DNA of 64,000 nt. It comes from Microglena sp. YARC. Taxonomy: Eukaryota > Chlorophyta > Chlorophyceae > Chlamydomonadales > Chlamydomonadaceae. The notes beneath the pieces are model-generated. The model was not told where the DNA came from and ran no database searches. It saw nothing but the letters and a program-made list of their open reading frames with translations. A program made the translations under genes and the position numbers. This document shows, piece by piece, positions 17,896-63,665 of this stretch. The stretch is taken from assembly GCA_022414725.1 (NCBI GenBank), contig CM039466.1, forward strand, positions 10,384,527 to 10,448,526. Direction: 5' to 3'. Each line of letters starts with the position of its first letter. Position 1 is the stretch's first letter.

Positions 17896-18132
17896 CTGTC
17901 AGACAGAGTGTTGTAGGACTGGCAGTTTGACCGAGCATATCCCAGTGCCTCTTCTAGTGGTGACTTCTTCGCGTAGGCTGCAGCTCCACCACCATTGGGC
18001 ATAGCCCCCCTCTTGATGAGCAGGTGGGTGATGGACGCTTGGCCAAAGCGGCATGCCAGGTGGAGAGGGGACACCCAGGGCTGGGGGTGTGTGTATCCAG
18101 GAATCTCAATGCTCTTGACAAAGTTCTTGATC
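17896..18132 (-). CDS. Exon E32: ankyrin repeat, last exon visible
   Basis: 237 bases encoding IKNFVKSIEIPGYTHPQPW, then VSPLHLACRFGQASITHLLI and KRGAMPNGGGAAAYAKKSPL. A textbook ankyrin core. It ends at a donor CAG|GTATGT, so the transcript continues leftward across the minisatellite. The donor lies directly against the array and is built from the same ACAT-type sequence. Confidence 0.93.
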
Positions 18133-21100
18133 CTGCAGTGATTTAGAAATGGGGATGTGAGGGTTCAGGGTTTAGGGGGGTGAGATTCTGGGTGTGTGAG
18201 ATTCCAGGAATTTAAATGCTCAATACGAAGTGTTAGATACTGCAGTGGATGCACTGCAAAGTGTTTGATTCTTCAGTGGGGGCAATACAAAGTTCTCAAA
18301 CCACTAACCTGTCAGTCAAAGCTGGTACATCTGTACCAACCAAGCCTGAGCTCGTATAGGCTTATGTCCAGGCGTACTTTACGAAGTTAGGCAAATGGAA
18401 GACACTGGCTAAACAATGTCATTGTTCGATGTCTAAGGAAACCAGCAACAATATTCATCTTTCTGTATACTGTTTCATACGAAGCAATACATCTTTCTGT
18501 ATACTGTTTCATACAAAGCAATACATCTTTCTGTATACTGTTTCATACAAAGCAATTAATACTTATCATATCTTCCGCTATATTCGTATGGAATTAGTGC
18601 TGGTAAAAATGCTTGCTTACTGCAATATGGCCTTCCGATAATATTTTGATAACAAAATCCGATAATAGTTTGGATATTATTTTGCAATATTGTCCGAGGA
18701 TTTGTTTGAAGACCCCTCCCAGATGTTGTGGAGCGGGCTTGTCAACAATGGCCAACAATAGCCTGTTGATGACAATGTAATGTAATATTGTGTAATGTAA
18801 TGTAATGTAATGCAATGTCATGTATTGCACTCACCCAGACAGCATCTTCACCAGGCCTGGGACAGGGTTGGTCCACAAGCGGGCATAGGGAATAGCACTG
18901 GCACCCGCGTCGAGCTGGTCCTTCACTTCCTTGCTCTTCTCCCTGAACAGAGCCCTGCGCCTCTCAATGTCCTTCTTGAGGTTGCCGCTGTACTCAACAC
19001 CAAAAGTGTTGGGGTCAGCGCCCATGTCGAGCATGAGCCTCACGGTCTCGAATTTCTTTTGCATCACCCCAACGTGCAGGGGCAGCACCTTGCTCCGGCA
19101 CTTACCAGCCATCTTCTCCCACTGGCCTTGCAGGTAGGTGGGAATGTCTGGCAGGGCCACATAGGAGTCGTTCAGGTTGCCAGCACACCTGCATGTACGT
19201 AGGTTGGAAGTCAAAGGGCTGTACAGCGTGTGTATGTATGAATGAATGTTGACAGGGCCACGTAGGAGTTGTTCAGGTTGCCAGCGCTCCTGCAAGCACG
19301 TAGGTTGAAAGTCAAAGGGCTGTACGGCGTATATGTTTGTACGGATGTAAATATGTATGTATGTTTGTACGCACTTGACCCATACAGAAAAAAACCCTAA
19401 CTCACATACAAATGCAAGAAAAGGAATTCAACAAATAGAATGAACAACCCAACCCAATAGAATGAACAACCCAACCCAACCCAATAGAATGAACAACCCA
19501 CCTGAAGACGAGCCAAGCCAGGCGAGGCATGTCATTGAGCAGCGTGGCAAGCACCATGGGGTCCATGATGGTTGGGTGGTTCACGGGCTGGAAGGCCTTA
19601 AGATCCAGCACCTTGTCCTCGAATTGGCGCAGAACCTTGGGATGTGTTCCTGCCCTTTGAGCTTTTGCCAGTGCTATTTCAGCACGTGGCAGCATGTACA
19701 TGCTGTTCGTAGCACGGGAACTGGCGAAGGGACGGTGGGCCAAGATCAGGTCTGTGATCTGCTGCACCACCTGTACGAAGAGAGAGGAGGAGAAAGTGGG
19801 GAAGTCAGTATGCAATAGCGGGTATATGCTGGCCACAGTGCGGGAGCTGGAGAATGGAAGGTGGGACAGGATCGAATCCGTGATCTGTTGCGTATATATA
19901 GAGAGAGGGAGACAGGGAGAGATAGGTTGGGGTAGTCAGTATGCAACAGAGAGAGAAGTAGAGAGTGGGGAAGTCAGTATGCAATAGCGGTAGATGCTGG
20001 CCACAGTGTGGGAGCTGGAGCATGGAAGGCGGGACAGGATCGAGTCTGTGATCTGTTGCATATATATATTGAGAGTGAGGGAGAGATAGTTTGGGGTAGT
20101 CAGTATGCAACAGCGGTATATGATGGCCACAGTGTGGGAGCTAGTGAATGGAAGGTGGGACAAGATCAGGTCTGTAATCTGTTGCACCACCTGTATGAAG
20201 AGAGAGAAGTAGAGAGTGGGGAAGTCAGTATGCAATAGCGGTATATGCTGGCCACAGTGTGGGAGCTGGTGCATGGAAGGTGGGACAGGATTGAGTCCGT
20301 GATCTGTTGCATATATATAGAGAGAGAGGGAGAGAGGGAGAGATAGTTTGGGGTAGTCAGTATGCAACAGCGGTATATGATGGCCACAGTGTGGGAGCTA
20401 GTGAATGGAAGGTGGGAAAAGATCAGGTCTGTAATCTGTTGCACCACCTGTATGAAGAGAGAGGAGGAGAGAGTGGGGAAGTCAGTATGCAAGAGCAGGT
20501 ATATGCTGGCCACAGTGCGGGAGCTGGTGCATGGAAGGTAGCCTTGTTGTGGCGCTCCTCCGGCAGCAGGAAGAGTGCGTACTGAATTGGGGTAACCCCA
20601 AATCCATCAGAAATATTCGGTCTATCCGGACCAAAGCAACATACAGACATACAGACATGGTGCACACACACACACACTACCCCCCTGCCCCCATGTATGT
20701 ATGCACCACCTTGTTGTGGCGCTCCTTCAGCAGCAGGAAGAGTGCGTACTGAATTGGGGTGACCCCGAAGCCGTCGGGAATGTTGATAGATGGGGAGAGC
20801 TTCAGAAGGGCCTCTACGCAGCTCATTCGGCCCAAACGAACTGCCAGCACCAGGGGGCTGGTGCGGTTGAGCTCCGGGCGGGTGGGCACATCTGCACCGC
20901 CGAACCATGAGGTTTTCTTGGGTGCAGCTTTCTTGCCCGGGGGCAGAGGACGCCGCTGGCGGGCTGCCTCCTCGGCCTTCTTGCACTTCTTCAGGAAAGC
21001 CGCCCACTTGCCCTGGGCCAGAGGGAACTCCTGGGGGAAGGAACCATGGTTGAAGTATTTAGACAAAGGTGTGTGTGGGGGGGTGGGGGGCGTGTATGTG

Positions 21101-24100
21101 TGTGTGTGGTGGTGGTGGTGGTGGGTGGGGGGGGGGGGGGGCAGCATGTTTTCTCACCCAAAACCCAATGTGTACTACATGTACAGTTTTCAGGCCCATC
21201 TTAGTATCTTTTAAGGACCACACCCAATCACCACCAACAATCTGAGGAGACGTACTCATGACTTCATGAGTGTCAAATTGATGTTCCTCAGTCACAGATC
21301 TAACCACCAACCACAATCACCACCAGCACCCACCAGCACCACCAACATGAGGAGACATGCTCTTGAGGTAACACTTGATGTTCCTCTGGTGCAGACATAA
21401 CCACTAACCACAATCAACCACCACCACCAACAACAACCACTATGTCCAAGCTGAGGAGACATACTCTTGAGATACCACTTGGTTTTCCTCTAGTGCAGAC
21501 CCACCAACCACAATCAACCACCACCAGCAACCACAATGACCAAGCTGAGGAGACATGCTCTTGAGGGACCACTTGATATTCCTCTGGCGCAGATCTAACC
21601 ACCAACCACAATCACCATCACCAGCCACCACCAACCTGGGGAGACATGCTCTTGAGGTACCACTTGATGTTCCTCTGGCGCAGATCTGCACTGACCGCCT
21701 GCTGCTCCTTCACAGTCTTGTACCCCTTCAGCCTGGCATGCACGTTCCACAAACCTGGCGCAGGGGTGGTTGGTTGGTTGGTTGGTTAGTAGTTGGTTAG
21801 TTACTAGTTGGTTGATTAGTAGTTGGTTGGTTGGTAGTTGGTTGGTTGGTTGGTTTGTAGTTGCTTGGTTGGTAGACTGGCATTCACGTTCCACAGACCT
21901 GAGACAGGGGTGGTTGGTTGTTCAGTAGTTGGTTGGTTAGTAATGGTTGGTTAATAGTTGGTTGGATGGTAGACTGGCTTTCATGTTCCACAGACCTGGG
22001 ACAGGGGTGGTTGTTTGTTTAGTAGTTGTTTACTTGGTATTTTGTTGGTCAATAGTTGGTTGGCTGGTTAGTAGTTACTTGGTTGGTACTCTGACTCACA
22101 TTCCGCAGACCTGGGGCAGGGGTGGTTGGTTGTTCAGTAGTTGGCTGCTTAGTAGTTGGTTGGTTTATAGTGAGTTGGTTGGTTAGTAGTGGCTTGGTGG
22201 GTAGACTGGCATTCATGTTGAACACAGACCTGGGGCAGAGGCACTTGGATGGTTGGTAGTTGGTTGGTAGTTGGTTGGTAGTTGGTTGGTAGGTTGGTAG
22301 ACTGGCATTCACGCTCCACAGAGGTGGGGCAGAGGCACTTGGTTGGTTGGTAGTAAGTTGGTAGATGGTTGGTATGTTGGTAGAATGGAAGTCCAATGGA
22401 CAGACCTGGGCCAGAGGTATTTGGTTGGTTAGTTGTTGGTTGATAGAGACGCCAGCATGAGGCTGGTCATGAACCAGACCTGGGCCAGAGGTATTTGGTT
22501 GGTTAGTTGTTGGTTGATAGAGACGCCAGCATGAGGCTGGTCATGAACCAGACCTGGGCCAGAGGTATTTGGTTGGTTAGTCGTTGGTTGATAGAGACGC
22601 CAGCATGAGGCTGGTCATGAACCAGACCTGGGCCAGAGGTATTTGGTTGGCTAGTCGTTGGTTGATAGAGACGCCAGCATGAGGCTGGTCATGAACCAGA
22701 CCTGGGCCAGAGGTATTTGGTTGGTTAGTCGTTGGTTGATAGAGACGCCAGCATGAGGCTGGTCATGAATTCTGTATCCTTTAGAGGATGGAAATACATT
22801 ATACAATGCTGTACAAAAAAGGTAATAATAACGCCAGGTGGGGCGAGGTTTTAAGGGAACCCGTCGTATGCGGGTAGAGAGCGGTCTTCTACCTCAACTG
22901 GACAAGCTACCATCGCGGTTGACAACGACCAGCAACGCTAAGAGCGACCGTAGGGGGAATCGAACCCCCGACTCTTTGTCCTAGTGATTTGGTATACAAC
23001 TAGACCAATGAATATCACTGAAAGGGGCTAATGCTATACAATGTATTAAAAAATGCGATGAGAATCGCTATATTAAATGATCACGGTAGGACAAACTCAG
23101 GGTCCCAATAGGTAAATCGATTGTTTGGGGTTCAGGTCACCAGTGTTATTTCTGTTCAGACCCTCCTGATATCATGGTTGGGCAGGTGCCTTTAGTCTAT
23201 TAAAACGTGCAACGCGATTCACAAGTGAATGTGAAGTGAAGTGAATGTGAAGTGAATGTGAATGTGAATGTGAAGTGAATGTATCACTGTAGCACGAACT
23301 CAGGGCCTCCGTCGGTAAATAATTGCTTGGGGATCAGTTCATCAGTTTTCTTTTTCCTTTTTCTGTTTAGACCTTCCTGATATCATGGTTGGGCTAATCC
23401 CTTTAGCCCTATTCGGTCAGCCCCTGGGATGTAGCAACATTAAGCTCCCGTCAACCTTAAGTGAATCTACTCATATGTAGGAGTGGCAACGCGATTCAAC
23501 TGAATCTTGTGTCGCTGTTTGTGTCGGGAGACACACCTCCTGGGGTGAAGTTATTTTCACAAATAAAAAACAAATACAGACAAATTGACCTGGCGCAGCA
23601 GCAGAGCCCTTGGACTTGGGGTCGTAGTCGTCCTCCAGCATGTCCTTCAGAGCGGGTGAGTTGATCGAAGTGTCGATCAAAACGGAGGTTGGTACCTGCG
23701 AGAATCATACGGTGTGTGTGAGTGCTTGGGTGGGTGGGTGGGGTGGGTGGGGTGGGGTGGGGGGGCGTAAGAGTGAAGGATGCTCACTAGATGCGGGGGT
23801 CTGAAATGTCTATCAAAACGGAGGTGGGATACTCCTTCTTTTGTGAGAATCATACAGGGTGGGTGGGGGGGGGTAGGGGGTAACAGTACAGGATGCTCAC
23901 TTTAGTGCGGGGGTCTGAAATGTCGAACTGAACAGAGGTGGGATACTTCTTCTCCTGCACTGATCATACAAGGGGAGGGGGTTCCAACCCACCACCAACC
24001 TGTCCTTAGCCCTAGACCCGGCCCTATCACTTACTTTCATGTACTTAGGCAGTCCTTCGTAGAGAGTTGCAGGCTGGTAATAGGGCTCATTGGCCCACAG

Positions 24101-26861
24101 CTTCTCTCCAGGCGTTCCGCAGATAAGGGCCTTTGCACGGTCCCCCATCGTCATGTTCACCTTCATCACCTTCTTCCCGTTCTTGTCGACCACAATTTCT
24201 CCCTCAGCCACAGGACCAGCCTCGCTCTTGAACTCAGATACCTCAGTACCCTCACCTGAATACAGGATTAAATGAATGAATGAAAACATGAATAAATGAA
24301 AAATGAATTAATACATGAATAAAGGAGAACACAAATATCTCATACATGAATGAATAAATGCATGAATACATTAATCAATTATGAATGAATCAATGAATGA
24401 ACAAAAACATGAATAAATTATGAATGAATAAACGAATCAATGAAATGAAGCTCACCCAGCGGCCCAGCAATCTTATGCAGCAGCAAACTGGATTCGGCGT
24501 TAAAGCTCTCCCGGTCGCTCTTCCTCCTCAGCCCCCCCTTCTTAAACGAAGTCTCTCTCAGGAGCTTGGAGGTGAACTCAGTCAGACTTCCTTTCCTGCT
24601 GGTCACAGGGCTACCATCCTGGTCAACCCTAAACGCTCCACCCTCTAGATCAGCGCCACCCGATGACCTGTCATCCGAAACATGGAGCCCGGTCTTGGAG
24701 GGCCTCAGGCGACCTTGAGGCAGTAGCTGGCGCATGGCCTTCTCCCTCTGGTCCAGGATCTCATCCATGGCATCCTCTTCATCAAAGATGTCATCACCCT
24801 GTACGTGTGTAAGTGTGAGCGTGCATGTGTGCAGGTTTGTGTGTATGTCTCTGTCTACATACCCCCCTGACTATCCCTGGGCTGGACCCCAAACAATCCT
24901 TTCACCAACGGGGGCCCTGAGTTTGTGCTGCAGTGATAATATCCCAGCAGTATGCTTGTGCAGTTTCAGCACAGTATTAAATTATGCCCAGCAGTACACA
25001 CGTATAGTTTCAGCACAGTATTAAATTATGCCCAGCAGTACACGCGTTTAGTTTCAGCACAGTATTAAATTATGCCCAGCAGTACACACATATAGTTTCA
25101 GCACAGTATTAAATTATGCCCAGCAGTACACACGTATAGTTTCAGCACAGTATTAAATTATGCCCAGCAGTACACACGTATAGTTTCAGCACAGTATTAA
25201 ATTATGCCCAGCAGTACACACATATAGTTTCAGCACAGTATTAAATTATGCCCAGCAGTACACACGTATAGTTTCAGCACAGTATTAAATTATGCCCAGC
25301 AGTACACACGTATAGTTTCAGCACAGTATTAAATTATGCCCAGCAGTACACACGTATAGTTTCAGCACAGTATCAAATTATGCCCAGCAGTACACACGTA
25401 TAGTTTCAGCACAGTATTAACTTATGCCCAGCAGTACACACGTACAGTTTCAGCACAGTATTAAATTATGCCCAGCGCCGCACATGTACATTATCAGCAT
25501 GTGACTCAATTCTGCCTTGCAGTACGGATGTACAGTATCAGCATGTTATTCAATTCTGCCCTGCAGTACGCATGTACAGTAGCAGCATGAGTTCTGATTT
25601 CACTCTGCCGTACACGTACAATTTCAGCATGATATCCAACCGCACCCAGCGGTACGCACATACAGGTTCAACATATAGAATACACTTATAGAACGAGAAT
25701 AACCTGGAACCCCAGCATACCTCGTCGTTGCAGTTGTACTTGTCCTCGTAGTCCAAGTCATCCTCTAGCTCAAGAGGTGGCATATCAGCCTCCTTCTCAT
25801 CTGAGGGGAAGAAACGATCCCACCTACAAACAGGGAGAGTGATTGGTTAGACAACAGGGCTGATGCTAGTCATCTGGACACCAGTACAAGCTACCTATAA
25901 ACACCACTTATAAACAGGGAGATTGATTGGTTAGACACCAGGGCAGGTGATAGTTATCTGGCACCAGTACATGCTACAAGCTCAAGAGGCGGCATGCCAG
26001 CCTCCTTCTCAATGGAAGGGGAAGAAACGATCCCACCTACAAGCAGGGAGATTGATTGGTTAGACAACAGGGCTGATGCTAGTTATCTTGACACCAGGAC
26101 ATGCTACCTACACCAGTCATTTACATTAAAAACAATTCAATTTATGACATCAGTCATTAAATAAAAACAATTCGATTTATGACATTAGTCATTTACATTA
26201 AAAACAATTCAATTTATGACATCAGTCATTAACATTAAAAACAATTCAATTTATGACATCAGTCACTTACATTAAAAACAATTCAATTTATGACATCAGT
26301 CATTAACATTAAAAACAATTTAATTTATGACATCAGTCATTAACATTAAAAACAATTCAATTTATGACATCAGTCATTAACATTAAAAACTATTCGATTT
26401 ATGACATCAGTCATTTACATTAAAAACAATTCAATTTATGACATCAGTCATTAAATAAAAACAAGATCAAATTAGAAATCAAACCGATATCAATTGATAA
26501 ATAAAAAACAAGAAAGAATCAACACACAGGAAGGCTTACCATAGAGAGCCCATCTTTCTCCAGCGCCTGCGCATAACAGCGGTGGGACCGTCGTAGTGAG
26601 ATGTGAGCATGCTCAGGTCAAGACCCTCAGCAACTGGACCAGACTCTTCCACAGGCTCATCCTCGGGGTTCTCTGCCTCGGAGTCCTCTCCCTGCCCATC
26701 ATCTTCTAACTCCATGTCAACCTCCTCAGCCTCAGCCTGCAGAAAGAAGCACGTGATGGGAGGGTGGATGGTAGGAAGTGTGGATGGGTGGGAGGGAGTG
26801 TGGGTGGTTGGGTGGGAGAGAGAGTGCGGGTGGGAGGGTGGGAGGGCATGTTAGTGGGAAG

Positions 26862-26910
<49 letters not shown>

Positions 26911-29900
26911 GACATGATATCATTCTGCAGCTCCCTACGCATGTTTCCATAGTAGGTTTGAAAAACAACTTTCACTCACCTCAACACACTCACGTGGGAG
27001 GGAGTGTGGGTGGGTGGGTGAGGCTCACGATCGATAGAAGGTGCCAGCTTGTTTGCTTGCACTGAGGCCAACCATCAATACAAATAAAACAAATGAACTA
27101 TAATACATACCACCAATACAAAACAAATGAACTATAATACATACCACCAATACAAAACAAATGAACTATAATACATTTCACAGACCTCCTAATAATAAAA
27201 AATAAATAAAAATCACTGACTTCTACATAATTATAATCAGGGGGGGGGGGGGGGGGGGGGGGGGGGCAGAAGGACAGATTTTGGACCGTACCTTCGATAT
27301 GGTGTCTGATTCAGATGGGAGTTGGAATTGTGGAAGTTTCATACAAAAAGAGGGGGGAAATAAAGTTGGGAAAAAGTTTTTAACCCCCCCCACCCACCCA
27401 CCCATCCACCCTCCCAAAACCCGATTACCTCACCCTACCCCCCCTAAAATGGGGGTCATTCGAAAGATCTTTTCTGGCCCATTCCAGTTATGCTCTTACA
27501 TCTTTCATGGGCTTGCCCAAACGTGATTTATCGCGTAGTTAATATTGGGGCCGCTTCGGTTGAAAAAACCTTTGGACCCCTCTAACTTTTGTACAACTTT
27601 ATTTTTGGCTAAACAAAATTGTTATAGGTTAGCCTATATCCAAAGCGAAGGTGCGGTACGGCAGCTTTTTTCTTGCCCTCCCCTCGATAATAATAATATA
27701 TAAAATAAATTTCACTGACCTCCACACGCTTGGGAACGGAGTCCATGAAGTCCCCTTTCTCCTCAGCGGACAGCTCGGCACCAGGCATGTCATCAGCATC
27801 ATCAGCAGTTGTGGACAGGAACTCCAAGCTGCCTCCATGTCCGGACCACACCTCCAAGAACTGAGGGACACCTGCATGTATTTATGTTTTCATTTGTGAT
27901 TCTGTTTTTCATTCGTGGTAATGGTGTTTATGTTGCACATATTTAGTCACATTGTATACATCACCTATCATTGTACTTCACATATTTAGTCACATTGCAT
28001 ACATCACCTATCATTGTACTTCACATATTTAGTCACATTGCATACATCACCTATCATTGTACTTCACATATTTAGTCACATTGCATACATCACCTATCAT
28101 TTTACTTCACATATTTAGTCACATTGCATACATCACCAATCGTACCATATCGAACTGCACGATGAGGCCAACTCTCGCCACTAATATCCGTGCAGTTGAC
28201 GGGCTTGGCTCCCATTCCGATGAGGATAGAGGCAACAGACAGAGTGTTGATGCGGTCCAAATGCATGGCATGGCCCAGAGCAGTCTTTCCCCCTTCGTCC
28301 TCCATGTCAACCTTCGCACCTCTTTGGAGCAGAATCTGCATTGTTGGGGTAGTGTGTATGTGTGTGACAGTGGGTAGTGTGTATGTGAGCGACAGTGGGT
28401 AGTGTGTATGTGTGCGACAGTGGGTAGTGTGTATGTGTGCGACAGTGGGTAGTGTGTATGTGAGCGACAGTGGGTAGTGTGTATGTGTACGACAGTGGGT
28501 AGTGTGTATGTGTACGACAGTGGGTAGTGTGTATGTTTGTGACAGTCCAGGTGTATGGTATGGCCCATGTATGCACAGCCCTCCCCGATATTGACTTTGG
28601 ATAAGTCTATTTTACCAGATAGACTGTAGAACACACACATGTGCATTGGTATTTGCATGACCCAGAATCTGCTTTGTTTCGATAGTGTGCATGAGTCCTA
28701 GCCCGTTTCAGTGATACGATTAGTCTAGTGGTACACCAAATCGCTGAAACGAAGCGGGGTCGGGGGTTCTATTCCCCCTACGGTCACCCTGAGCATTGCA
28801 GGTTATTACCAACCGCAAAGGTAGCTTGTCCAGTCGAGGTGGTAGACCGTTCTCTGCCCGCGTACGATGGGTTCCCTTAATACGATGCCCCACCAGGCGT
28901 TATCATATCTAGATTCCAGTTACCGTGCCGGTCGACGACCCTCCGGGCGGGCCCAAGTGGACTCAAGGGGTTTGAACCTTTCACCTGCTGCGATCCTTTT
29001 CCTGCACTGCTGATATTTCTGTTCATGCGCACGTCAACTAGTCAAATGTTAGGGTGTGGAGGTGGCCGGAATCTGGCAAACAGCGACAGACAGGCAGACA
29101 GAGATGCAGACTGACAGGCATGGACCATGGAAATAAAGGCTCCAGCCCCAGGCCTCTGGGGGGCCTAGGGAGGCTAAAGCATCAAGTCCTAGGACCGTTG
29201 CAAGCGGCGCAGAAAATTAGCGGAGAGTGGGTTCGAAATTGGCGAGGTTCAAGCTGTCCGAGGATTAGAAGGGTGGAGAGTGGCGAGGCCCAGTTTTGGA
29301 ACATGACGGACGGACAGACAGACAGACAGACAGACAGATTCTTGGACAAAAGCTGTGACCCTGGAGGATCCTGCCCTCCAGAAAAGGGGGGCCTGGTAAC
29401 ACCAAAGCTGGCACCACAAAAACTACACCACCGACACAAAATGCATGATTCACCCAATTCAACCTGTGCCCCTGATTAGAAAACAAATCCATCCCCCATC
29501 TCCCATCTCTCACCACCCATCCCCCACCTTCCATACTCCCCCCATCTGCCATCCCCCACCCACACATGATCTCCCATATTTCAGCCTGCGCCCCTGATTA
29601 GAAAATAAATATCCCATCCGCCATCCCATGTCACATGAGAGGTGGCTGGTCTCCAGGTGACACCAAATCTGAACAGCAGCAGCCCCAATAATGAAACATC
29701 AAGCACGATGTCCATTGATGTACCAAATTTGCCAAATGCCCATCGATACATCGAATTAAAACTTTGGCTTACCTGGATGGAGCCCTCACTGGCGCCCTTA
29801 GCAGCGCACATGAGAGGGGTCTGGCCTCCAGGTACAACCGGAGCCATTACAGGCGAGGAGCAGCAGCCCCCTTTGCTGAGTACAACCGGTACGAATTTCC

Positions 29901-30900
29901 TGGTGCGCTGTTTCTCATGATTGGGATCGACCTGAACATTTGTAATTATGGGTTTTGGGGTTGATCTTCGACTGTCTATAGGTCCTGATTGCAGGGTACG
30001 CATGCTCTTTCAAGGGAACACTGCTCGGGATCATTGGGATTAACCTAGGCATTTGTAGTTATGGGGGTTGGGGTTGATCTCCGACTGTTTAGAGGTCCTG
30101 ATTGCAGGGTACGCACGCTCTTTCAAGGGTACACTGCCCGGGATCATTGGGATTAACCTAGGCATTTGTAGTTATGGGTTTTGAGGTTGATCTCTGACTG
30201 TCCACAGGTCCCGATTGCAGGGTACGCATGCTTTTTCAAGGGTACACTGCCCAGGATCATTGGGATTAACTTGAGCATTAGCAGTTACAGGTTTTGGGGT
30301 TGATCTCCGACTGCCCAATTCAACCCACCCCAGCCCTGCCATGCCCAGGTAGGCCCAAGACTCATCATCAAGCAGGCAGGGAATATGAGCTTGTGCAGCC
30401 TACAGCCCATCCACACACACCCTCCCTCCCACACACAATCCCTCCCACCCACCCAATACTGCCCAAGCTCCATCAAGCTCACCTGCACCACCTCCAAGAG
30501 ATACTTCACCAGCCAAGCATTGTCATGGAATGCAGCAAGCATGAGGGGGGTGTAGCCCTTCTCATCTTTCTTGTCCCAGTCCAAGGGGCCTTTGCTGGAC
30601 AGCACTTGGACTGCTCGCTCAGCAAAGTTGGAGAGTGGATTCTACAGGACACCATGTAAAGGAGCACATCAGTAAATGGAATGCGGCAAGCATCAGTAAA
30701 TGAAATGCAACCGTTGTCCTAACTCTCAATGTGCATGTGTAGATGGCGTAAGCCTTTCTTGCAGATTACCAGATGCTATCATATCCATCTACCAGCATAC
30801 CTTGCATATACCCCCCCCCCCCCCCCCCCTCTCCCCCTCAATTCCTCCTCTCTCATACACACACGCTTCTTGAGTTCCTCCTACAGTAGAGCCATCTCAA

Positions 30901-30973
<73 letters not shown>

Positions 30974-33111: not shown

Positions 33112-33156
<45 letters not shown>

Positions 33157-34565
33157 AGGGAAAGGGTCATACAAGGGATGTAGTCATTAGCAAAGGGGAG
33201 AGCCATGCATGTGTGCATTGGCGGATATTGTAGCCTCTGTCCAAGAGCACATGACAACCTGGTCTTGGGTGTCCATTGATGGCAAGCATGAGGGGGGTGT
33301 CCATCACTGTGGGGGCAAACAAAGGGAAAGGGTCATACAAGGGATGCAGTGATTGACAAGGGGAAAGAAACGAAGGGGAAAGAAGCAAAGAGAAAGACAC
33401 ATCCAAGGGAGAGGGTAGGTAACTAAGGGAAATAAACAACAAAGGTATAGTGTTATGCTATGGCATACTAGTGCCGCTGCAGAACCTGACCTGGTCTGCC
33501 GCCTATTCATAAGCTGGGCCTTCCTTGCGTAAAGAATCGATGACCTCTACCTCTGAATCACATATAGAGTCAGTAACAAAATCCATGCCCCATCATCACT
33601 CTCTATATTAGTACACACAATTATCACTCTCTATCTAAGTACATACAATTATTACTACGGGTTGTTCATCCCGATTGATGACTCAAAAGCAACACACATG
33701 CCCCCATCATCACCACAGTATACACGTTATCTGCTGAAGTACACACATGACCTGCCGTAGTACACAATATCTGCCACAGTACACACATTACCTGCCACAG
33801 TGTGCATGTTACCTGCCACAGTACACACATTACCTGCCACAGTGTGCATGTTGCCTGCCACAGTACACACATTACCTGCCACAGTGTGCATGTTACCTGC
33901 CACAGTACACACATTACCTGCCACATTACACATGTTACCTGCCACAGTACACACATTACCTGCCACATTTCACATGTTACCTGCCACAGCACACACATTA
34001 CCTGCCACATTACACATGTCACCTGCCACAGTACACACATTACCTGCCACATTACACATGTTACCTGCCACAGTACACACATTATCTGCCAAAGGACACA
34101 AATTATGTGCCGTAGTACACACAATATCTGCTGTAGTACACACCTTATCTGCCGTTGAACACACAGTATCTGCCGTAGTACACACAATCAATGGAGATTT
34201 CTTGCCTTAAGTGTTTTTCTCCCCCTTGCTTACTTACCCATGTCCTTTTGCATGATGTTTCTGGTAGAGGCATCTCCCAGTTGCTCGATGATCTTCATTG
34301 AGTTCTTTTGAGCCTCCTCCTCAGGCCCAGCCTGTGGGGGTGTGTGTGTGGTGTGTGTGTGTGTGGTGTGTGTGGTGTGTGGTGGGAGTGGGTTGAGGTT
34401 TGTGGTGAGGTGTGTGGTGGGGAGTGGGGTGGGGTGGGGTGGGGGGCATGAAGCATTCTTTTGCCTTCAGCCACAGAGAGTATTTGCTCACCTCTGATTT
34501 TCAGGTGATTTTAATTTTCAGGTGATTTCCTGTACATGATGCCAACATCAGTGTGCCTTAATTCG

Positions 34566-34628
<63 letters not shown>

Positions 34629-41466: not shown

Positions 41467-41518
<52 letters not shown>

Positions 41519-46530: not shown

Positions 46531-46563
<33 letters not shown>

Positions 46564-52500: not shown

Positions 52501-55500
52501 CTTCGGCAGGCCACTGTTGGCAAGCGCCGCAACAGCCACGTGGGGCCTCCCAGCCTCACTCGGCGGCTTCCCTGAGCTGGAGACCACATTCCTGACATAG
52601 CGAGGGCTGCTTCCCACGCGAGAGCCCCTCTCCCCATCGTACGAGGACCTGGCCAGCATGCTCCTCTGCCCTGATTGAGCTGGGGGGGGGGGGCAGGGGA
52701 TGGAGGGTGGGGGGGGGAGGGGATAAAGGGTGGGGGGCTGGGGGGCTGGGGATGGAGTGTAGGGGTGGGGGGTGGGGGCTGGGGGGTGGAGATGTAGGGT
52801 GGGAGGTGGGTATGGGACGTGGTGGGGGGGGTACCTGCAATGAAACCAATGCAGCGGCATGACTTCTTATAAGGGTTCAGGGTACATTACGCTTAACTCT
52901 ACCACAAATTGTTCATCACGATTTGCTTGTTCAGGTAATTTTAGAGTCAGCTGACAACTCATTCTTTGATGAGATAATTATCCAGCAACAAACTTAGAAA
53001 TTCAGCTGGACCTTTTTTATTCAGAGGATTCTCACCCGAAGAAGGTGGCAGAGTTCAGTGAATGCAATAAATGCATGCCGCCACCACCCCCACTACCCCC
53101 ACCTACCTCTTCCCCCCCACCACCATGCACGTCAGTTGTAAGTAGGGCAGGGCAGGGCAGGTTGGTACGAGGTAGACAATAGCATGCAATTATATGCCAG
53201 CATGAGGTTCTCTTCGAGGAGGGTGGCAGAGTTCAGTGGATGCAATGCATGCCGGATGCAGTTTTTTTTTTAAGCTGAAAGTGGTTTTTATCTAGCTTTA
53301 TGGTTACAGGCCTCCTCCAGGGGCAGCGTTTTAGTGCTTTTTACAGCAATTTACAGCTTTTGAAGCCTATTATAGCTTTTCAAGGCCATTTAGGGGGGAG
53401 GGGGTAATTTTTGTTCTGTACATTTGTACAGAGATAATTTTGCCATAACGGGGTCAAAACTAGCGAGCGCTACATACGGTACAGCGGAAATAAAAAGGCC
53501 TGGCCGCTTGCACATCAGTGCTAAGTAGGGCGGGGCAGGTTGCTATGAGGTAAACAATAGCATACAATGCGTATGGCGCACCGTGGACTAAACCAGCAGG
53601 CTCTTCTGCCCTGGGGGGGCAGGGGCTCCGTGGGTAGTGGAGAAGTTAGCCCCCACTTACGTTAGCCCCCACATGCGTTACACCTAGACCCTGAACCCTG
53701 AACCCTAAACCTTCAACTCAAAATCTTAACCACTCAACCCTAACCCCCCTAAACTTAACAGGGGGCTACCTTAAGTGTGGACCAACCACCACCATTAACT
53801 GGGGGTTACATTAACTGGGTACCTGCCACCACCACCACCACCACCATTAACTGGGGGCACTTTAAGTGGGGGCTTACTTCCCCAGGACTCACCGTGGACT
53901 GAAGTACCTGAGTCTGAGGGCCGCTTCTCTGTCCTTTCTTCCAAGCTCGAGCGCTGGGAGGCAGACGTCCGGACTCTGTCCCTGTCTCGCCCCACAGCTG
54001 CAGAAGCGCTCGTCTGCAGGCTACGGGAGGGGGGCCTGGGGACCGAGGGACACGGGGAGGGCTTGGGCGCAGGCATCTCCGAGGGGTGGGAGGGGGGCCT
54101 GGAGACCGAGGGGCACGCGGAGAGCTTAGGCACAGGCATCTCCGAGGGGTGGGAGGGGGGCCTGGAGACCGAGGGACACGAGGGGGGCTTGCTCACCGGC
54201 ATCTCCGTGGGGTTGGAGGAGCTGCGGGGCATAGAGCACTTGCCCCTGGACAAGGGAGGGGGCTGCGGATGCAGCGCAAACTTGCCGTTTGCTCTGGGCA
54301 CACCACCCACTGTAGTGTCCAGGTCCAGAGAGCTCCTGGAATCCTCTGACCGGGTATACGATAGCCGACGGCCCCTCGAGCCTGACACGGGGATGTTAGA
54401 GTCTGACCTGAAAAGAACAGAAAAGAAAAGCAGTAAGTCGGTGTGAATTAAGGAAGCTGTCCAAAAGGGGTCCTCGGACAACACTAGGGGGGGTGCATCA
54501 CAGGTCGTGTGTTGTGCATTGGAGTGGGTCTCAGCTGCACTATACTTATATGCATCTTATTGATCCCCGTTCAACGAATGGCTCAGTGGCAGAGCTCCTA
54601 GAACGTCGAAGGTGCCGGGTTCGAATCCCTACAGGTGCAACTTTAGTGTTTGTGGTCGCTGTCAACAACCATGGTAGCTTTGTCCAGGTAAAGTATCAGC
54701 CCGTTCCCTCCCTTCGTATGACGGGGCTCCTTTAATACCACTCCCCACCAGGCGTTATCATTCCTTTTTTGTATGCATGTTATATGCATGTTATATGCAT
54801 GTTATATGCATGTTATATACCAGACATAAAACATACAGAAATACAAACCTCCGCATCTTCACCTTGGTGGCTATCAGCCGACTGGCCGCACTAGGTGGGG
54901 AACCTGAGCACGAAGCTCGTACTTTGACACTGCCAGCTGAGGAGCGTGTTGGCGGCCGCTGGCTTGGCTTGCTGCTGCCTGACCAGCCACTGGCTTGGGC
55001 CTCAGAAGAGGATGCTTGTGACAGCCCCCGCCTAGCCAGCAAGGGCTCCCCCACTAGCTTTGCCTTGGCCCTGGCCACAGCTGCGGCCTCTTCCTTCTCC
55101 TTCTCCCGCTCTAGCTTCAGCTTCATGTGTTTGGCCGAGTACTTGGCTCGCAGCTCTTTTCGTTTCTCAACATCGTCCTTTCGCCGCTTCTCTTCGTCAC
55201 TGTATGCAAAGCGTTGGCACAAGGAAGGCTGGTGTCAGTGTGGGGACAAGGATTTGGGCAAAGTACACACCCACAAGGAAGGCTGGTGTCAGTATGCTGA
55301 CAAGGATTGGGGCGATGTACACACCCACAAGGAAGGCTGGTGTCAGTATGCTGACAAGGATTTGGGCGATGTACACATCCACAATGAAGGCTGGTGTCAG
55401 TATGCTGACAAGGATTTGGGCGATGTACACACCCACAAGGAAGGCTGGTGTCAGTATGCTGACAAGGATTTGGGTAAAGTACACACTCACACAAGGAAGG

Positions 55501-58500
55501 CTGGAGTCAGTCTGCTGACAAGGATTTGGGCGATGTACACACTCACACAAGGAAGGCTGGTGTCAGTATGCTGACAAGGATTGGGGCGATGTACACACCC
55601 ACAAGGAAGGCTGGTGTCAGTATGCTGACAAGGATTTGGGCGATGTACACACCCACAAGGAAGGCAGGTGTCAGTATGCTGACAAGGATTGGGGCGATGT
55701 ACACACCCACAAGGAAGGCTGGAGTCAGTCTGCTGACAAGGATTGGGGCGATGTACACACTCACACAAGGAAGGCTGGTGTCAGTATGCTGACAAGGATT
55801 TGGGCGATGTACACACCCACAAGGAAGGCTGGTGTCAGTATGCTGACAAGGATTTGGGCGATGTACACACCCACAAGGAAGGCTGGTGTCAGTATGCTGA
55901 CAAGGATTGGGGCGATGTACACACCCACAAGGAAGGCTGGAGTCAGTCTGCTGACAAGGATTGGGGCGATGTACACACTCACACAAGGAAGGCTGGTGTC
56001 AGTATGCTGACAAGGATTGGGGCGATGTACACACCCACAAGGAAGGCTGGTGTCAGTATGCTGACAAGGATTTGGGCGATGTACGCACCCACAAGGAAGG
56101 CTGGTGTCAGTATGCTGACAAGGATTGGGGCGATGTACACACCCACAAGGAAGGCTGGTGTCAGTCTGCTGACAAGGATTTGGGCGTTGTACACACCCAC
56201 AAGGAAGGCTGGTGTCAGTATGCTGACAAGGATTTGGGCGATGTACACACCCACAAGGAAGGCTGGTGTCAGTATGCTGACAAGGATTGGGGCGATGTAC
56301 ACACCCACAAGGAAGGCTGGAGTCAGTCTGCTGACAAGGATTGGGGCGATGTACACACTCACACAAGGAAGGCTGGTGTCAGTATGCTGACAAGGATTGG
56401 GGCGATGTACAAACCCACAAGGAAGGCTGGTGTCAGTATGCTCACAAGGATTTGGGCGATGTACACACCCACAAGGAAGGCTGGTGTCAGTATGCTGACA
56501 AGGATTTGGGCGATGTACACACCCACAAGGAAGGCTGGTGTCAGTCTGCTGACAAGGATTTGGGCGATGTACACACCCACAAGGAAGGCTGGTGTCAGTA
56601 TGCTGACAAGGATTTGGGCAAAGTACACCCACGAGGAAGGCTAGTGTCTGTATAAGGACAAGGATTTGGGCGAAGTACACACCCACAAGGAAGGTTGGTG
56701 TCGTATGCTGACAAGGATTTGGGCACAGTACGCCCACGAGGAAGGCTGGTGTCTATGTACAGACAAGGATTTGAACGAAGTGCAATGATTATAAATCATG
56801 ACACAAACTTACACTTCATGCTGTTCAAAATAACTTAACACAATTATACACAGGATTATACATCAATAAAGTAATTATAAATAATTATAATTGATTATAA
56901 ATCATTATACAAACTAGCACTTCATGCTGTTCAAAATTAGAATACATAATTATGTATAATCAAACTAACACTTTATGCTGTTCAAAGTAATTATAAATCA
57001 TTATAATTGATTATAAATCAATATAATTGATTATAAATCATTATAATTGATTATAAATCATTATACAAACTTACACTTCATGCTGTTCAAAATAACTATA
57101 ATTGACTATACATAATTATACAAACGTACACGTCATGCTGTTCAAAGTAATTATAAATCATTATTATTGATTATACATAATTATACAAACTCACACTTCA
57201 TGCTGTTCAAACTCAGCCGTGAGCTTAGCTATCGATGGAGGCGGAGCTCCCACCACCACCTCCACGCTCTTTCCCTCGCCCACAGGGAGCCCAAATCGTT
57301 CTGTAACTCGCTCCATTGCACTCTGGGGATGAAAAAATAGAATGTTGAGTATATTTGTCTGTTTTGTTTCATTTGTTCCTATTTTGTGTTTGTTTTGTTT
57401 TGGTCCAGCATCCTTACACCACTCACCCTCCCTACTTATGGGAATTGTGGGGTCGCATTGTTTTGTTTTGTTTTGGCCCTGCCTCACTGCCCTTATTGCC
57501 CTCCCTACTTATGGGAATTGTTGGTTGTATTGGTTGTATTGGTTGTATTGGTTGTATTGGTTGTATTGGTTGTATTGGTTTGTTTTAGACCTGCCTTGCT
57601 TCCCGTCTTGCCCTCCCTACTTGTCGGAATTGTTGGTTGTATTAGTAGCATTGGTTGTATTGGTTTGTTTTGGCCCGGCCTCGCTACCCTTCTCGCCCTC
57701 CCTACTTCCCTTCCTCTTTCCTCCTCCCCATTTCCCTTCTCAAACCCTATAATCCGTCAATCCCCATCCCCATCCCCCTGCTCCTCCCTTTCTTCCAATC
57801 AGGGTACTACATTTTTCAAATTGGTCAGCGCTTAAAGCGCACAAACGCCAAATTGGTCAGCGCTTAGTAGTGAAACGCAAAAACTGCGCGCTGCGTCCAC
57901 AGGGGGTTGAAACAACTGCGCAAAACGCGCAGTGGGGCTCAAAAAGTGTACGTGAAATTGCGCTGCCACGCGCGCTTTGTAGTACCCTGCTTCCAGTCAG
58001 TTGCACACTCACCTCAGCGCACGGATTTGCCCTCCCTCCCCCCTCCCCCCCCCCCCTCCCCCCCCTCCTTCCAAAGAGCCACACACTTACTTCACACACA
58101 CACTTAAACTCCTGGGTTGAAAATCCTTCCAAACAAAAAAACACCTCGAATCCAGGATTGGCCATGGCCTCAGCTAGGGTCGGCCGTCACCTCCAAGCCC
58201 CCCCCCCCCCCCCCCCCCACGCCTCTCCTTCCCTTCCAAGCAGTCACACACTCACATCAAAGCCAGGATTGACCCCCCCTCCCCCCCCTCTTCCCCCCTT
58301 CTTCTCCCTCTCCCTCCCCCTTCCAAGCAGCCACACAGTCACTTAACCTCTTGGGTTGAAAATCCTTCCAAACAAAAACACAGTTCAGAGCAAGGATTGG
58401 CCATGGCCTCAGCTGCAGTTGGTCGCCCACCTACAAGCAACGACCACACCCCTCCCCTCCCAACCCCTCTCCATCCAAGCAGTCACAAACCCACCTTGAA

Positions 58501-58833
58501 GGCAGGATTGGCCATGATCTCAGCTGCAGTTGGTCGCTCACCTCCAAGCAGCGACCACACACTCACATCACATCCTGGGTTGAAAAAGAAAACATCCCAC
58601 CTTGAAGGCAGGATTGGCCATGATCTCAGCTGCAGTCAGTCGCCCACCTCCAAGCAACGACCACACCCCCCTCCCCTCCCAACCCCTCCCCTTCCAAGCA
58701 GTCACAAACCCACCTCGAAGGCTAGAATGGCCATGATCTCAGCTGCAGTTGGTCACCCACCTCCAAGCAACGACCACACACCCCTCCCCTTCCAAGCGGC
58801 CACACACTCACCTTGAAGCAATGATTGCCCCCC

Positions 58834-58864
<31 letters not shown>

Positions 58865-61800
58865 CTCTTCTCCCTCCCCCTCCCCCTTCCAAGCAGCCAC
58901 ACAGTCACTTCACCTCCTGGGTTGAAAATCCGTCCAAACAAAAAACCCACCTCGAAGGCAGGATTGGCCATGATCTCAGCTGCAGTCAGTCGCCCACCTC
59001 CAAGCAACGACCACACACCCCTCCCCTCCCAACCTCTCCCCATCCAAGCAGTCACAAACTCACCTGGAAGGCTGGAATGGCCATGATCTCGGCTGCAGTC
59101 GGTTGCCCACCTCCAAGCAACAACCACACACCCCTCCCCTCCCCTTCCAAGCAGCCACACACTCACATTACTTCCTGTTTGAAAACTCACACTCACCTGG
59201 AAGGCAGGATTGGCCATGATCTCAACTGCAGTTGGTCGCTCACCTCCAAGCAACGACCACACACCTCTCCCCTCCCAACCCCTCCCCTTCTAAGCAGACA
59301 CACACTCACATCACTTCCTGGTTTGAAAACATAAACACACCTCGAAGACAGGATTGGCCATGATCTCAGCTGCAGTTGGTCGCCCACCTCCAAGCAACGA
59401 CCACACCCCTCCCCTCCCAACCCCTCTCCATCCAAGCAGTCACAAACCCACCTTGAAGGCTGGAATGACCATGGCCTCAGCTGCAGTTGGTCGCTCACCT
59501 CCATGCAACGACCACACACCCCTCCCCTCCCTTCCAAGCATCCACACACTCACCTCGAAGGCTGGAATGGCCATGAGCTCAGCTGCAGTTGTTCGCTCAC
59601 CTCCAAGCAACGACCACACACACCCCTCCCCTCCCAACCCCTCCATATCCAAGCAGTCACAAACCCACCTTCAAGGCTGGAATGCCCATGGCCTCAGCTG
59701 CAGTTGGTCGCTCACCTCCAAGCAACGACCACACACCCCTCCCCTTTAACCCACACACCCCTCCCAAGCAGTCACAAACTCACCTCGAAAGCAGGATTGG
59801 CCATGATCTCAGCTGCAGCCGGTCGCTTCGACTCATCCTTGGCCATCAGTGACTTTACCATATTACGCAGCTCCTCACTGTGGCGTATGAAAGGATTATG
59901 CAAGGGTATATGGAAGGGTATATGGAAGGGCACATGAAAAGGATTATGCAAGGGTGTATGAAAGGATTATGCAAGGGTATATGGAAGGGTATATGGAAGG
60001 GCACATGAAAAGGATTATGCAAGGGTATATGTGAGGGCACATTTAAGGGCACATCAAAAGGATTATGCAAGGGTGTATGAAAGGATTATGCAAGGGTATA
60101 TGGAAGGGTATATGAAAGGGCACATGAAAGGGTGTATGAAAGGAAGAGTATATGAAAAGGCACATGAAAGGGTGTATGAAAGGATTATGCAAGGGTATAT
60201 GGAAGGGTATATGGAAGGGCACATGAAAAGGATTATGCAAGGGTATATGTGAGGGCACATTTAAGGGCACATCAAAAGGATTATGCAAGGGTGTATGAAA
60301 GGATTATGCAAGGGTATATGGAAGGGTATATGAAAGGGCACATGAAAGGGTGTATGAAAGGAAGAGTATATGAAAAGGCACATGAAAGGGTGTATGAAAG
60401 GATTATGCAAGGGTATATGGAAGGGCACATGAAAGGGTGTATGAAAGGATATATGGAAGGCTATGTGAAAGGGCATATGAAATAGGTATAATATAATGGT
60501 GGCATGAGGAAAGGCAACCAAGCATGGGTGGGGGGAAGCTGGTCCCCACAAAGGCAGTCCCCAGTGAATCAAATCTTCTCAGGTTTAGGGTTTAGGGTTA
60601 GGGGTTTAGGGTTTAGGGGTTTAGGGTTCAGAGTTTAGGTTTTACGGTTTAGGGTATAGTTTTCTGATTCACTGGGGACTGGCTTTGTGGGGACTAGCTT
60701 CCCCCCTCCAGCAGCATGCGGCTTTATTCACCTGTAGTGGTTTGGGATTAGTGGAGTCGGGCCTGCAGTGATTTTCTTCTGCAATCCCTTTAGCCTATTT
60801 TGGCTTACCCCTGGACAGTAACATACATTTGAATGGGCAGAACAAAACACAGTACCCCTGGACTGTAACATACATACATGCATACGCACCTGTAGTGGTT
60901 TGGGATGAGTGGAGTCGGGCCTAAAGTGATTTTCTTCTGCATTCCCTTCAACATTAATAAATAGACCCAGAGAGTGCTGACAAGTCCCTTTAGCCTATTT
61001 GGACTACCCCTGGACTGTAACATACATTTGAATAGGCAGAACAAAACACAGTACCCCTGGACTGTAACATGCATACATACAATCGCACCTGTAGTGGCTT
61101 GGGATGAGTGGAGTCGGGCCTGAAATGATCTTCTTCTGCAATCCCTTCATGTCGAATGCCTGCGCAGAAGTGAGAAGCAGAGCTTTTTCCAGTTCAGAAA
61201 GTGGGTTACAGGGGGTAGCTTCGTGGGTTTAGGCCTCCTCCAGGGACAGAGTCCTGATATTTTTAGTGGGGCCGCCCTGGATGTTCAAGGGGCAGCATCC
61301 CCCGAGAGCTGGGGAATTCAAGGGTCTCAGGTAGCGAACGTTTGTGCCAAAACAGTATCTCAAGTAGCGAGCGTTTCAGCCAAAAGGGGGTCTCAGGTAG
61401 CGAAGGTTTCGGCCAATACAGGTTCTCGGGTAGCGATCAGGATAGACAGCGGAAAAAACATGTGGTAAGAAGAACAGGGTTCAGAGACTGCATCCAAATG
61501 TATCGCGCATATCTTATACAAACGGCACATTATGTATCAACGTAAAATTTGATTAAGAGTTAGCGAGTACTACTCCTACATACACCTTGAACGATTGTTT
61601 TGGATTCATTTATCAATGCTTTTTCTTTTTAGCCCTTCCTGTCACGGTTACGCAAGTCCCTTTGGCCTACCCCTGGACTGTAACAAACATACGGTTTGCC
61701 ATTTCAAATAGGTACAGGAAGGAACCCCACATGAGCCCTTGCCATTTCAAATCGTAGCAGAGCATTAAAAAATCAGCTGCTGCTGCTGCTGCTGCTTCTA

Positions 61801-62181: not shown

Positions 62182-63665
62182 CTGACAAGGAGACAGTAGG
62201 GTGTGTTGGATTAGGTAGGTTTGGTGTAGAAGGTATGCTATTTTCTGATGGGGGGAGGGGGGGGGGGGGGGTAGCTGATAGGGGGGCTTGCATCAGCTCA
62301 GGAAACATGTTGTTAGGGGTTCCAACCTGACAAGGAAACAGTAGGGTGTGTTGGATTGTACATGTTCTGTGATGCGTGTTGACAATGATGATGGGTGGTG
62401 ATGAAGACAGTAGGATGCAACAGTATAGGTAGGTTCAGTGTAGAAGGAATGCTATTTTCTGATGGAGAGGCGCCAGCTGATCATGGATCTTGCATGAGCT
62501 CTGGGGACATGTAGTTAGGGGTTCCAACCTGACAAGGTAAGGAGACAGTAGGATGCAATAGCGTAGGTAGGTTTAGTGTAGAAGGTATGCTCTTTTCTGG
62601 TGAGGGGGGGGGGGGGGGGGGGGGGAGCTGATAGGGGGGCTTGCATTAGCTCCAGGGACATGCAGTTAGGGGTTCCAACCTGACAAGGAGACAGTAGGGG
62701 GTGTTAGATTGGACATGTTTTGTGATGCATGTTGATAATGATGATGGGTGGTGATGGAGACAGTAGGATGCTGTAGCGTAGGTGGGTTCAGTGTAGAAGG
62801 TATGCTATTTTCTGATGGGGGGGGGGCTCAGCTGATAGGGGGGCTTGTCTGAGCTTCGGGGACATGCAGTTAGGGGTTCCAACCTGACAAGTAGATAGTA
62901 GGGTGTGATGGATTGGACATATTTTGTGGTGCATGTTGATAATGATGATGGGTGGTGATGAAGACAGTAGGGTGTGTTAGCGTAGGTAGGTTCAGCATAT
63001 ACGTTATGCTGTTTTCTTATGGGAGGATGTCAGCTGATCAGGGGTCTTGCATGAGCTCAGGGGACATGTCGTCAGGGGTTCCAACCTGACAAGGTCAGGA
63101 GATAGTAGGATGCTGTAGCGTAGGTAGGTTCAGTGTAGAAGGTATGCTCTTTTCTGAGGGGGGGGGGGTGGGGGGGAGCTGATAGGGGGGCTTGCATTAC
63201 CTCAGGGGACATGTACTTCAGGGTTCCAACCTGACAAGGAGATAGTATGATGTGTTGGATTGGACATATTTTGTGGTGCATGTTGATAATGATGATGGGT
63301 GGTGATGGAGACAGTATAATGTGTTAGCGTAGGTGGGTTCAGCATATACGTTATGCTGTTTTCTAATGGAGGGACGTCAGCTGTACGACTTGTCTTGTAA
63401 TAGCCCCGGGGACATGTTATTAGGGGTTACAACTTGACAAGGAGACAGTAGGGTGTGTGGGATTGGTCATGTTTTGTGATGCGTGTTGACAATGATGATG
63501 GGTGGTGATGGAGACAATATAATGTGTTAGCGTAGGTGGGTTCAGCATATACATTATGCTGTTTTCTAATGGAGTGACGTCAGCTGTACGACTTGTCTTG
63601 TATTAGCTCCAGGGACATGTAATTAGGGGTTACAACTTGACAAGGAGACAGTAGGATGCGTTTGG
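62182..63665 (-). repeat. Array of eight E1 5'-edge pseudo-exons
   Basis: Copies end at about 62326, 62528, 62679, 62883, 63085, 63230, 63432 and 63636, each with gacatgtagttaggggttcc and aacctgacaagg. Sense reading is G-T-P-N-Y-M-S-x-E-L-M-Q or close, then P-L-S-A-P. The two right-most have AACTTGACAAGG, which destroys the acceptor AG|G context. G runs in five of the spacers are acceptor-side C-tracts in the sense strand. Confidence 0.94.

What the first reader, a model, noticed from the sequence alone, without database searches (positions are those of the whole stretch)
17896..63665. Introns built from tandem copies of the neighbouring exon's edge and splice site
At 14 or more of 32 exons the adjacent intron is a tandem array whose unit includes 10-100 bases of the exon plus its donor or acceptor: E1, E2, E3, E4, E9, E10, E11, E18, E20, E21, E27, E28, E30, E31, with single copies at E13, E24 and E29. 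Both donor-side and acceptor-side edges are copied, and copies are decayed but recognisable. Tandem duplication across AG|GT junctions is a known model for intron gain, but I know of no well-described gene where it has happened repeatedly at so many exon edges. It suggests exon-intron boundaries are preferred sites of duplication here, or that such expansions are tolerated only where splicing still works.
Basis: seen in the sequence. Interest (0 to 1): 0.92.

Follow-up and report, generated by a model that had tools for sequence, protein, structure and literature searches.

The report
Alga introns built from exon-edge repeats
In two neighbouring genes of what is probably a green alga, the introns are largely repeats, and many of these carry copies of the adjoining exon's edge and splice site; this likely arises because ordinary repeat growth spills over exon borders while splicing is predicted to skip the copies, making it a dense new case of something already known from amphioxus.

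Summary
I rebuilt 33 exons on the minus strand. They belong to two genes, not one: a NEK-type kinase (7 exons) and an ankyrin-repeat protein (26 exons). Junction-spanning copies lie in the junction's own intron at 24 of 65 junctions (75 copies). At a strict score it is 18 of 65, reached by 0 of 1953 junction-by-foreign-intron pairs. Copies are about 85% identical to the real edge in both exon and intron parts, and 60 of 75 keep the splice dinucleotide. The host looks like a chlamydomonadalean green alga.

Repeats fill the introns: 59.8% of 1742 internal intron positions have a same-intron copy. Coverage falls towards the junction with no peak, and junctions are less covered than interiors in all 15 settings tried. 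A stop-codon edge with no splice site is copied too. The intron-birth signature is absent in 30 of 31 introns.

Best reading: ordinary minisatellite growth overruns exon edges, and splicing still takes the outermost site. The kind is known as "mirages" in amphioxus (PMC3087553, passages). New are the host, the density, and public gene models that contain edge copies.

The parts
52351..62181 (-). Gene N: NEK-type protein kinase, C-terminal part, 7 exons N1-N7 (62181-62059, 61159-61089, 59877-59784, 57322-57195, 55199-54849, 54407-53908, 52670-52351), 528 aa, ends in a stop
   Evidence: in-frame splicing without internal stops; Pkinase PF00069 E=1e-16; best solved relatives NEK1 and NEK2
17896..43098 (-). 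Gene A: ankyrin-repeat protein, 26 exons A1-A26, 1473 aa, open at both ends
   Evidence: in-frame splicing; Ank_2 PF12796 E=8e-62; 6 differing residues in 1351 aligned to P0001
62326..63636 (-). acceptor-side array of N1: 8 copies of intron end and 40-53 nt of exon; 6 of 8 keep AG
61942..61942 (-). single donor-side copy of N1
   Evidence: score 40
60889..60889 (-). donor-side copy of N2 (61 nt of exon + GT)
   Evidence: score 84
58255..59668 (-). donor-side array of N3: 12 copies; the stretch 59084-59064 in one copy is the first exon (MAIPAFQ) of public model P0121
56812..57129 (-). donor-side array of N4: 5 copies
49980..51552 (-). array of 9 copies (scores 20-38) of the N7 stop-codon edge: an exon edge without a splice site
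   Evidence: tandem array 50327-51987
42807..42927 (-). donor-side copies of A1 (2)
40757..41061 (-). donor-side array of A3: 4 copies
39961..40285 (-). donor-side copies of A4 (2)
39105..39505 (-). acceptor-side copies of A5 (3)
37176..37176 (-). single donor-side copy of A7
   Evidence: score 41
31562..33306 (-). acceptor-side array of A12: 10 copies, unit about 166 bp with C-rich tract, AG and 103-118 nt of exon
30044..30270 (-). acceptor-side array of A14: 3 copies, unit 113 bp
26036..26036 (-). single acceptor-side copy of A18 (90 nt of exon)
   Evidence: score 80
23901..23954 (-). 54-nt intronic stretch upstream of A21 that public model P0001 reads as an extra exon (EKKYPTSVQFDISDPRTK); its peptide resembles the start of A21
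21898..22323 (-). acceptor-side array of A22: 5 copies
21241..21544 (-). donor-side array of A22: 4 copies
19895..20447 (-). acceptor-side array of A24: 5 copies, 74-91 nt of exon
19289..19289 (-). single acceptor-side copy of A25
   Evidence: score 68
18239..18239 (-). single acceptor-side copy of A26
   Evidence: score 30

Best explanation
The introns of these two genes are largely repeats, many of which contain copies of the adjoining exon's edge, and these edge copies are likely passengers of ordinary tandem duplication that would hit introns at random and spill over exon borders, while splicing is predicted to go on using the outermost, real site. Shown here: the arrays, the copied edges, the lack of a coverage peak at the junction, the copied stop-codon edge, and the decay of the copies without regard to reading frame. 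Inferred: slippage or unequal exchange makes and expands a unit whose ends fall at arbitrary places; if one end falls inside an exon, the exon slice and its splice site are multiplied into the intron; this survives only if the spliceosome keeps the copy next to the exon body (first donor, last acceptor), as pairing of sites across short exons (exon definition) would do; the spare copies then decay. Untested: RNA usage.
For: Edge copies far above chance and local: 24 of 65 junctions at >=20 (null 9 of 1953), 18 of 65 at >=30 (null 0 of 1953); for those 24 junctions, copies scoring >=25 anywhere in the window number 68 in the own intron and 3 elsewhere, all 3 for A2 A. General duplication: 59.8% of 1742 internal intron positions have a same-intron copy (on either side) versus 6% of 302 internal exon positions. 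No peak: pooled one-sided coverage is 4% at exon -60, 22% at -30, 29% (18 of 62) at the junction and 45-50% from +30 to +250; junction below interior in 15 of 15 settings over 30 introns. Not splice-specific: the N7 stop-codon edge has 9 copies downstream. Unit ends vary: the exonic share of the unit is 0.13-0.70 in 18 strict cases, and no unit holds a whole exon. Copies decay as non-coding DNA: exon part 84.7% and intron part 84.8% identical; distinct changes by codon position 97/81/96 of 367/370/371 sites, p=0.40; 1 of 48 distinct exonic indels is a multiple of 3. Copies look like splice sites yet appear skipped: 36 of 75 score at least as high as their own real site; using an intact copy breaks the frame or adds a stop in 58 of 60 cases; in the UWO 241 protein P0004 the net insertion is 0 at 13 of 13 strict array edges of gene A. 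Exons are short (median 152 nt) and introns long (median 716 nt).
Against: No RNA data: use of the outermost sites rests on reading frame and homology. Volvox and Chlamydomonas are thought to use intron definition (passages of PMC4378016), which would favour the inner copies. A mutational preference for edges could be hidden if selection removes most edge duplications; junction depletion alone cannot exclude that. Unit ends may not be fully random: no exonic share exceeds 0.70 (KS against uniform p=0.056). Some results could hint at use of copies: distinct changes are synonymous in 27.4% against 21.5% expected, p=0.02, without a transition correction; per-copy counts by codon position are uneven (237/146/206, p=2e-6), though shared ancestry inflates them; the splice dinucleotide survives in 60 of 75 copies, a little above the 72% that two bases at 85% identity would give (my arithmetic); four public gene models contain extra edge-like peptides. 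Only 31 introns of two genes were examined.
Confidence: 0.74

Rival explanations
1. Exon edges are true hot spots: something about splice sites or transcription makes duplication start there, and arrays then spread into the intron.
For: 18 of 65 edges carry strict copies, on both donor and acceptor sides.
Against: Coverage has no peak at the junction and is flat from +30 to +250; junctions are below interior in 15 of 15 settings; the N7 stop-codon edge, which is not a splice site, is copied 9 times.
Confidence: 0.08
2. The introns themselves were born by tandem duplication of AGGT-bearing exon sequence (Rogers model), and the arrays are the remains.
For: Potato RdRp shows an intron gained by duplication across an intron-exon boundary (PMC4974935, passages); the P0001 model reads an A21-like intronic stretch as an exon.
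Against: Donor surroundings resemble the same intron's acceptor surroundings above the 95% null in 1 of 31 introns, about the number expected by chance.
Confidence: 0.05
3. The copies are functional: alternative exon ends or regulatory decoys kept by selection.
For: 60 of 75 copies keep the splice dinucleotide; four public gene models contain edge-like peptide copies; two A3 donor copies stay open in frame; slight synonymous excess.
Against: Dinucleotide retention (80%) is close to the 72% expected of two bases at 85% identity (my arithmetic); indels ignore the frame, 1 of 48; 58 of 60 intact copies would disrupt the protein if used.
Confidence: 0.08
4. The arrays are assembly artefacts.
For: A 1000-base run of N lies inside the 17.9-kb array; such arrays are hard to assemble.
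Against: Copies are diverged (about 85%) and carry their own indels; edge-like peptide repeats also appear in two other homologous gene models, P0002 and P0003, whose DNA I did not see.
Confidence: 0.04

Closest known systems
Amphioxus 'mirages' (minisatellites spanning exon-intron boundaries; Adh3, globins BflGb6 and BflGb9; PMC3087553, passages)
   Same: Tandem units span intron and exon, at 5' or 3' boundaries; many but not all keep AG/GT; units of similar size; regular splicing is said to be unaffected there.
   Different: Host is a probable green alga; 18-24 of 65 junctions in two adjacent genes; here edges could be shown to be covered less than intron interiors; no RNA or haplotype data.
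Lancelet PGBD5 repeats of 60 and 108 bp over splice sites (PMC3902484, passage)
   Same: Imperfect tandem repeats over 5' and 3' splice sites.
   Different: One gene, in an animal.
[quoted passage not shown] potato RdRp and fission yeast cases in PMC4974935, passages)
   Same: Duplication across an intron-exon boundary can create a new exon or intron.
   Different: No donor-acceptor homology in 30 of 31 introns here; the arrays look secondary to existing introns.

Membership tests
Mirage-type minisatellites | tandem repeats whose unit spans an exon-intron boundary | tested here: met
   18 of 65 junctions at strict score, 0 of 1953 null pairs
Mirage-type minisatellites | occur at donor and acceptor boundaries | tested here: met
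   10 of 32 donors, 14 of 33 acceptors at score >=20
Mirage-type minisatellites | many but not all copies keep the splice signal | tested here: met
   60 of 75
Mirage-type minisatellites | regular splicing is not disturbed | not testable with these tools
   no RNA; reading frame and homologues agree with outermost sites
Mirage-type minisatellites | length instability between haplotypes or cells | not testable with these tools
   one sequence only
Intron gain by tandem duplication (Rogers model) | donor and acceptor surroundings of one intron are homologous | tested here: not met
   1 of 31 introns above the 95% null
Intron gain by tandem duplication (Rogers model) | intron absent in relatives | not testable with these tools
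   no DNA of relatives was available

The most novel reading that the evidence does not exclude
Exon-edge arrays are an exon nursery and a natural splicing experiment: in this alga about 60 intact decoy splice sites in two genes are read past because splicing pairs sites across exons and takes the outermost copy, against the intron definition assumed for Volvox and Chlamydomonas, and now and then a copy escapes the rule and becomes a real new exon, as the fourfold EFPLAQGKWSAFL peptide of homologue P0003 and the extra exons in P0001 and P0121 suggest.
Probability: 0.25. Interest if true: 0.72.

Novelty: new member of a known kind. Interest (0 to 1): 0.5.

Why it matters
It carries boundary-spanning minisatellites from amphioxus to a probable green alga, at a density that turns many introns into a test of which of several near-equal splice sites is used. 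That makes exon versus intron definition directly testable in an alga. It would also help explain long introns by repeat growth, and it shows that automatic gene models of this species take edge copies for exons, so predicted peptide repeats at exon borders deserve distrust until RNA supports them.

Tried and rejected
Amphioxus as host: my first guess from the mirage literature; rejected because the best named hits of the ankyrin protein are green algae. One gene with 32 exons: rejected, two genes. Intron birth by duplication: no sign in 30 of 31 introns. The first copy counts were inflated by alignments of the edge with itself and were dropped; one search replaces them. The first identity table let copies align to the real edge or to neighbouring copies and was dropped; one search replaces it. 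The giant 43-bp array below 17899 as an edge array: its best copy scores 19, below threshold, and by eye only the intron side matches. Rfam (at gathering scores) and tRNA scans of the window found nothing. Species name: not established; no tool gave the source species of the EukProt records. Literature: in the listings of ten full-text searches I recognised boundary-spanning minisatellites only in amphioxus papers. I saw titles and abstract beginnings there and passages of seven papers, no whole paper; a listed C. elegans paper on splicing and intronic minisatellites (PMC4039745) was not opened, so this is no proof of absence. PMC11782384 (passages) reports short direct repeats at the two ends of introns, a different pattern.
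Full report
What is there. On the minus strand I placed 33 exons. They splice in frame into two proteins: a NEK-type kinase part of 528 aa ending in a stop (N1-N7) and an ankyrin-repeat protein of 1473 aa, open at both ends (A1-A26). Pfam gives Pkinase (E=1e-16) and Ank_2 (E=8e-62); the nearest solved kinases are NEK1 and NEK2. All 32 donors are GT except A2 (GC); all 33 acceptors are AG. The N6 donor is uncertain by 12 nt: the public model P0121 reads four more residues there.

Host. For the ankyrin protein the best hits are three EukProt records: P0001 (91% over 98% of the query), P0002 (79%) and P0003 (81% over 34%). Next come named chlamydomonadalean algae, first Chlamydomonas sp. UWO 241 (47%). 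P0001 differs from the window at 6 of 1351 aligned residues (five at one join, 75-80, and one at another, 415), lacks its first 26 residues and two stretches (191-216, 345-414), and has one 18-residue addition; it is taken as this gene. The kinase matches P0121 (98% over 83%), numbered next to P0001 (gene10357, gene10358). That P0002 and P0003 are paralogues in the same species is inferred from the shared name format.

Is it more than chance? For each of 65 junctions I scored copies that span the junction (at least 6 points on each side) in the junction's own intron, leaving out the edge itself. 24 of 65 reach 20 (10 of 32 donors, 14 of 33 acceptors), with 75 copies; among 1953 pairs of a junction with another intron, 9 reach 20. 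At 30 or more it is 18 of 65, on 16 exons, against 0 of 1953. Six junctions score only 20-25 and are weak. For the 24 junctions, copies scoring at least 25 anywhere in the window number 68 in the own intron and 3 elsewhere. Three of 65 junctions have an inverted match of 25 or more.

Are edges preferred? Not in this window. Of 1742 internal intron positions 59.8% have a same-intron copy on either side, against 6% of 302 internal exon positions. With one-sided targets, pooled over donors and acceptors of 31 complete introns, coverage is 4% at exon -60, 17% at -45, 22% at -30, 32% at -10, 29% (18 of 62) at the junction, 31% at +10, 42% at +20 and 45-50% from +30 to +250. Per intron (30 introns of 260 nt or more; one shorter intron dropped), the junction is below the interior in all 15 combinations of flank and threshold, each bootstrap interval lying below zero. 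The stop-codon edge of N7, which is no splice site, has 9 copies (scores 20-38) in the following 3 kb and one more at 41716. Selection against edge duplications could hide a mutational preference; the data cannot separate the two.

What the copies look like. Aligned outward from the junction, 75 copies have 3862 bp of exon part (84.7% identical) and 3440 bp of intron part (84.8%); the splice dinucleotide is unchanged in 60 of 75, near the 72% that two bases at 85% would give (and my arithmetic). Counting each distinct change once, mismatches by codon position are 97, 81 and 96 over 367, 370 and 371 sites (p=0.40), and 1 of 48 exonic indels is a multiple of three. Against this, counts per copy are uneven (237, 146, 206; p=2e-6, inflated by shared ancestry), and distinct changes are synonymous a little more often than random (27.4% against 21.5%, p=0.02, no transition correction). 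The exonic share of the unit runs from 0.13 to 0.70 in 18 strict cases (KS against uniform p=0.056), and no unit contains a whole exon.

Splicing. By a leave-one-out weight matrix, 16 of 33 donor copies and 20 of 42 acceptor copies score at least as well as their own real site. Taking any one of the 60 intact copies instead would shift the frame in 46 cases, add a stop in 12 and stay open in 2, both at A3. At the 13 strict array edges of gene A, the net insertion in homologues is 0 at 13 of 13 in P0004 and at 12 of 12 testable in P0006. In P0008 it is 0 at 10 of 12 testable (the others are shorter by 8 and 13). In P0002 it is 0 at 12 of 13 (the other is shorter by 9), but this narrow window misses a 42-aa insertion just beyond A24. 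P0003 has insertions of 5, 5, 64 and 26 aa at 4 of 11 testable edges. So the outermost sites give the conserved protein. Skipping acceptor copies that lie upstream of the real ones is what exon definition would do; exons are short (median 152 nt) and introns long (median 716 nt). For Volvox and Chlamydomonas intron definition has been proposed because their introns are short (PMC4378016, passages). This is inference, not RNA evidence.

Edge copies in public gene models. Two can be traced to this window: P0121 starts with MAIPAFQ, read from an N3 array copy at 59084-59064, and P0001 has 18 extra residues read from an A21-like intronic stretch at 23954-23901. For two others I saw only the proteins: P0003 shows the start of exon A23 four times exactly at the A22/A23 border (64 extra aa) and has 26 extra aa at A23/A24; P0002 has 42 extra aa near A23/A24. 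In the eight more distant proteins compared (P0004, P0006-P0010, P0012, P0014), no insertion of 7 aa or more lies within 8 aa of a strict array edge. Either annotation software was misled, or copies are sometimes recruited as exons; RNA would decide.

Comparison with the known. Boundary-spanning minisatellites are called mirages in amphioxus (Adh3, globins; the passages also point to further loci), with units of 10-160 bp, both boundaries affected, many but not all units keeping AG/GT, and regular splicing (PMC3087553, passages; PMC3902484, passage). The sequence features that define them are met here; RNA and haplotype features could not be tested. The Rogers model of intron gain is not met: 1 of 31 introns shows donor-acceptor homology above the 95% null. 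I file this as a new member of a known kind, in a new and distant host and at high density.

Noticed in passing
1-17899: Giant array of a unit of about 43 bp (17.9 kb, with a 1-kb run of N) that begins at the A26 donor; by eye only the intron side of the junction resembles the unit.
   Followed up: partly
41716: Lone diverged copy of the N7 stop-codon and 3' region (score 68) inside an intron of gene A, 10.6 kb from N7: dispersed, not tandem.
   Followed up: partly
20546-20640: Intronic copy of the end of exon A23 that stops exactly at the exon-intron border and runs straight into the A24 array (seen by eye).
   Followed up: no
38747-38776, 39641-39670, 60986-61015: Interspersed element with the core GTCCAGGGGTAGGCCAAATAGGCTAAAGGG, 3 close matches with none expected, and more diverged ones by eye.
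   Followed up: partly
60580-60660 and 53680-53740: Degenerate TTTAGGG-like runs seen by eye; this telomere repeat type is recalled for some green algae.
   Followed up: no
55218-56773: 54-bp unit, 28.7 copies, near the N5 acceptor, where no junction-spanning copy was found: an intron array that stops short of the edge.
   Followed up: no
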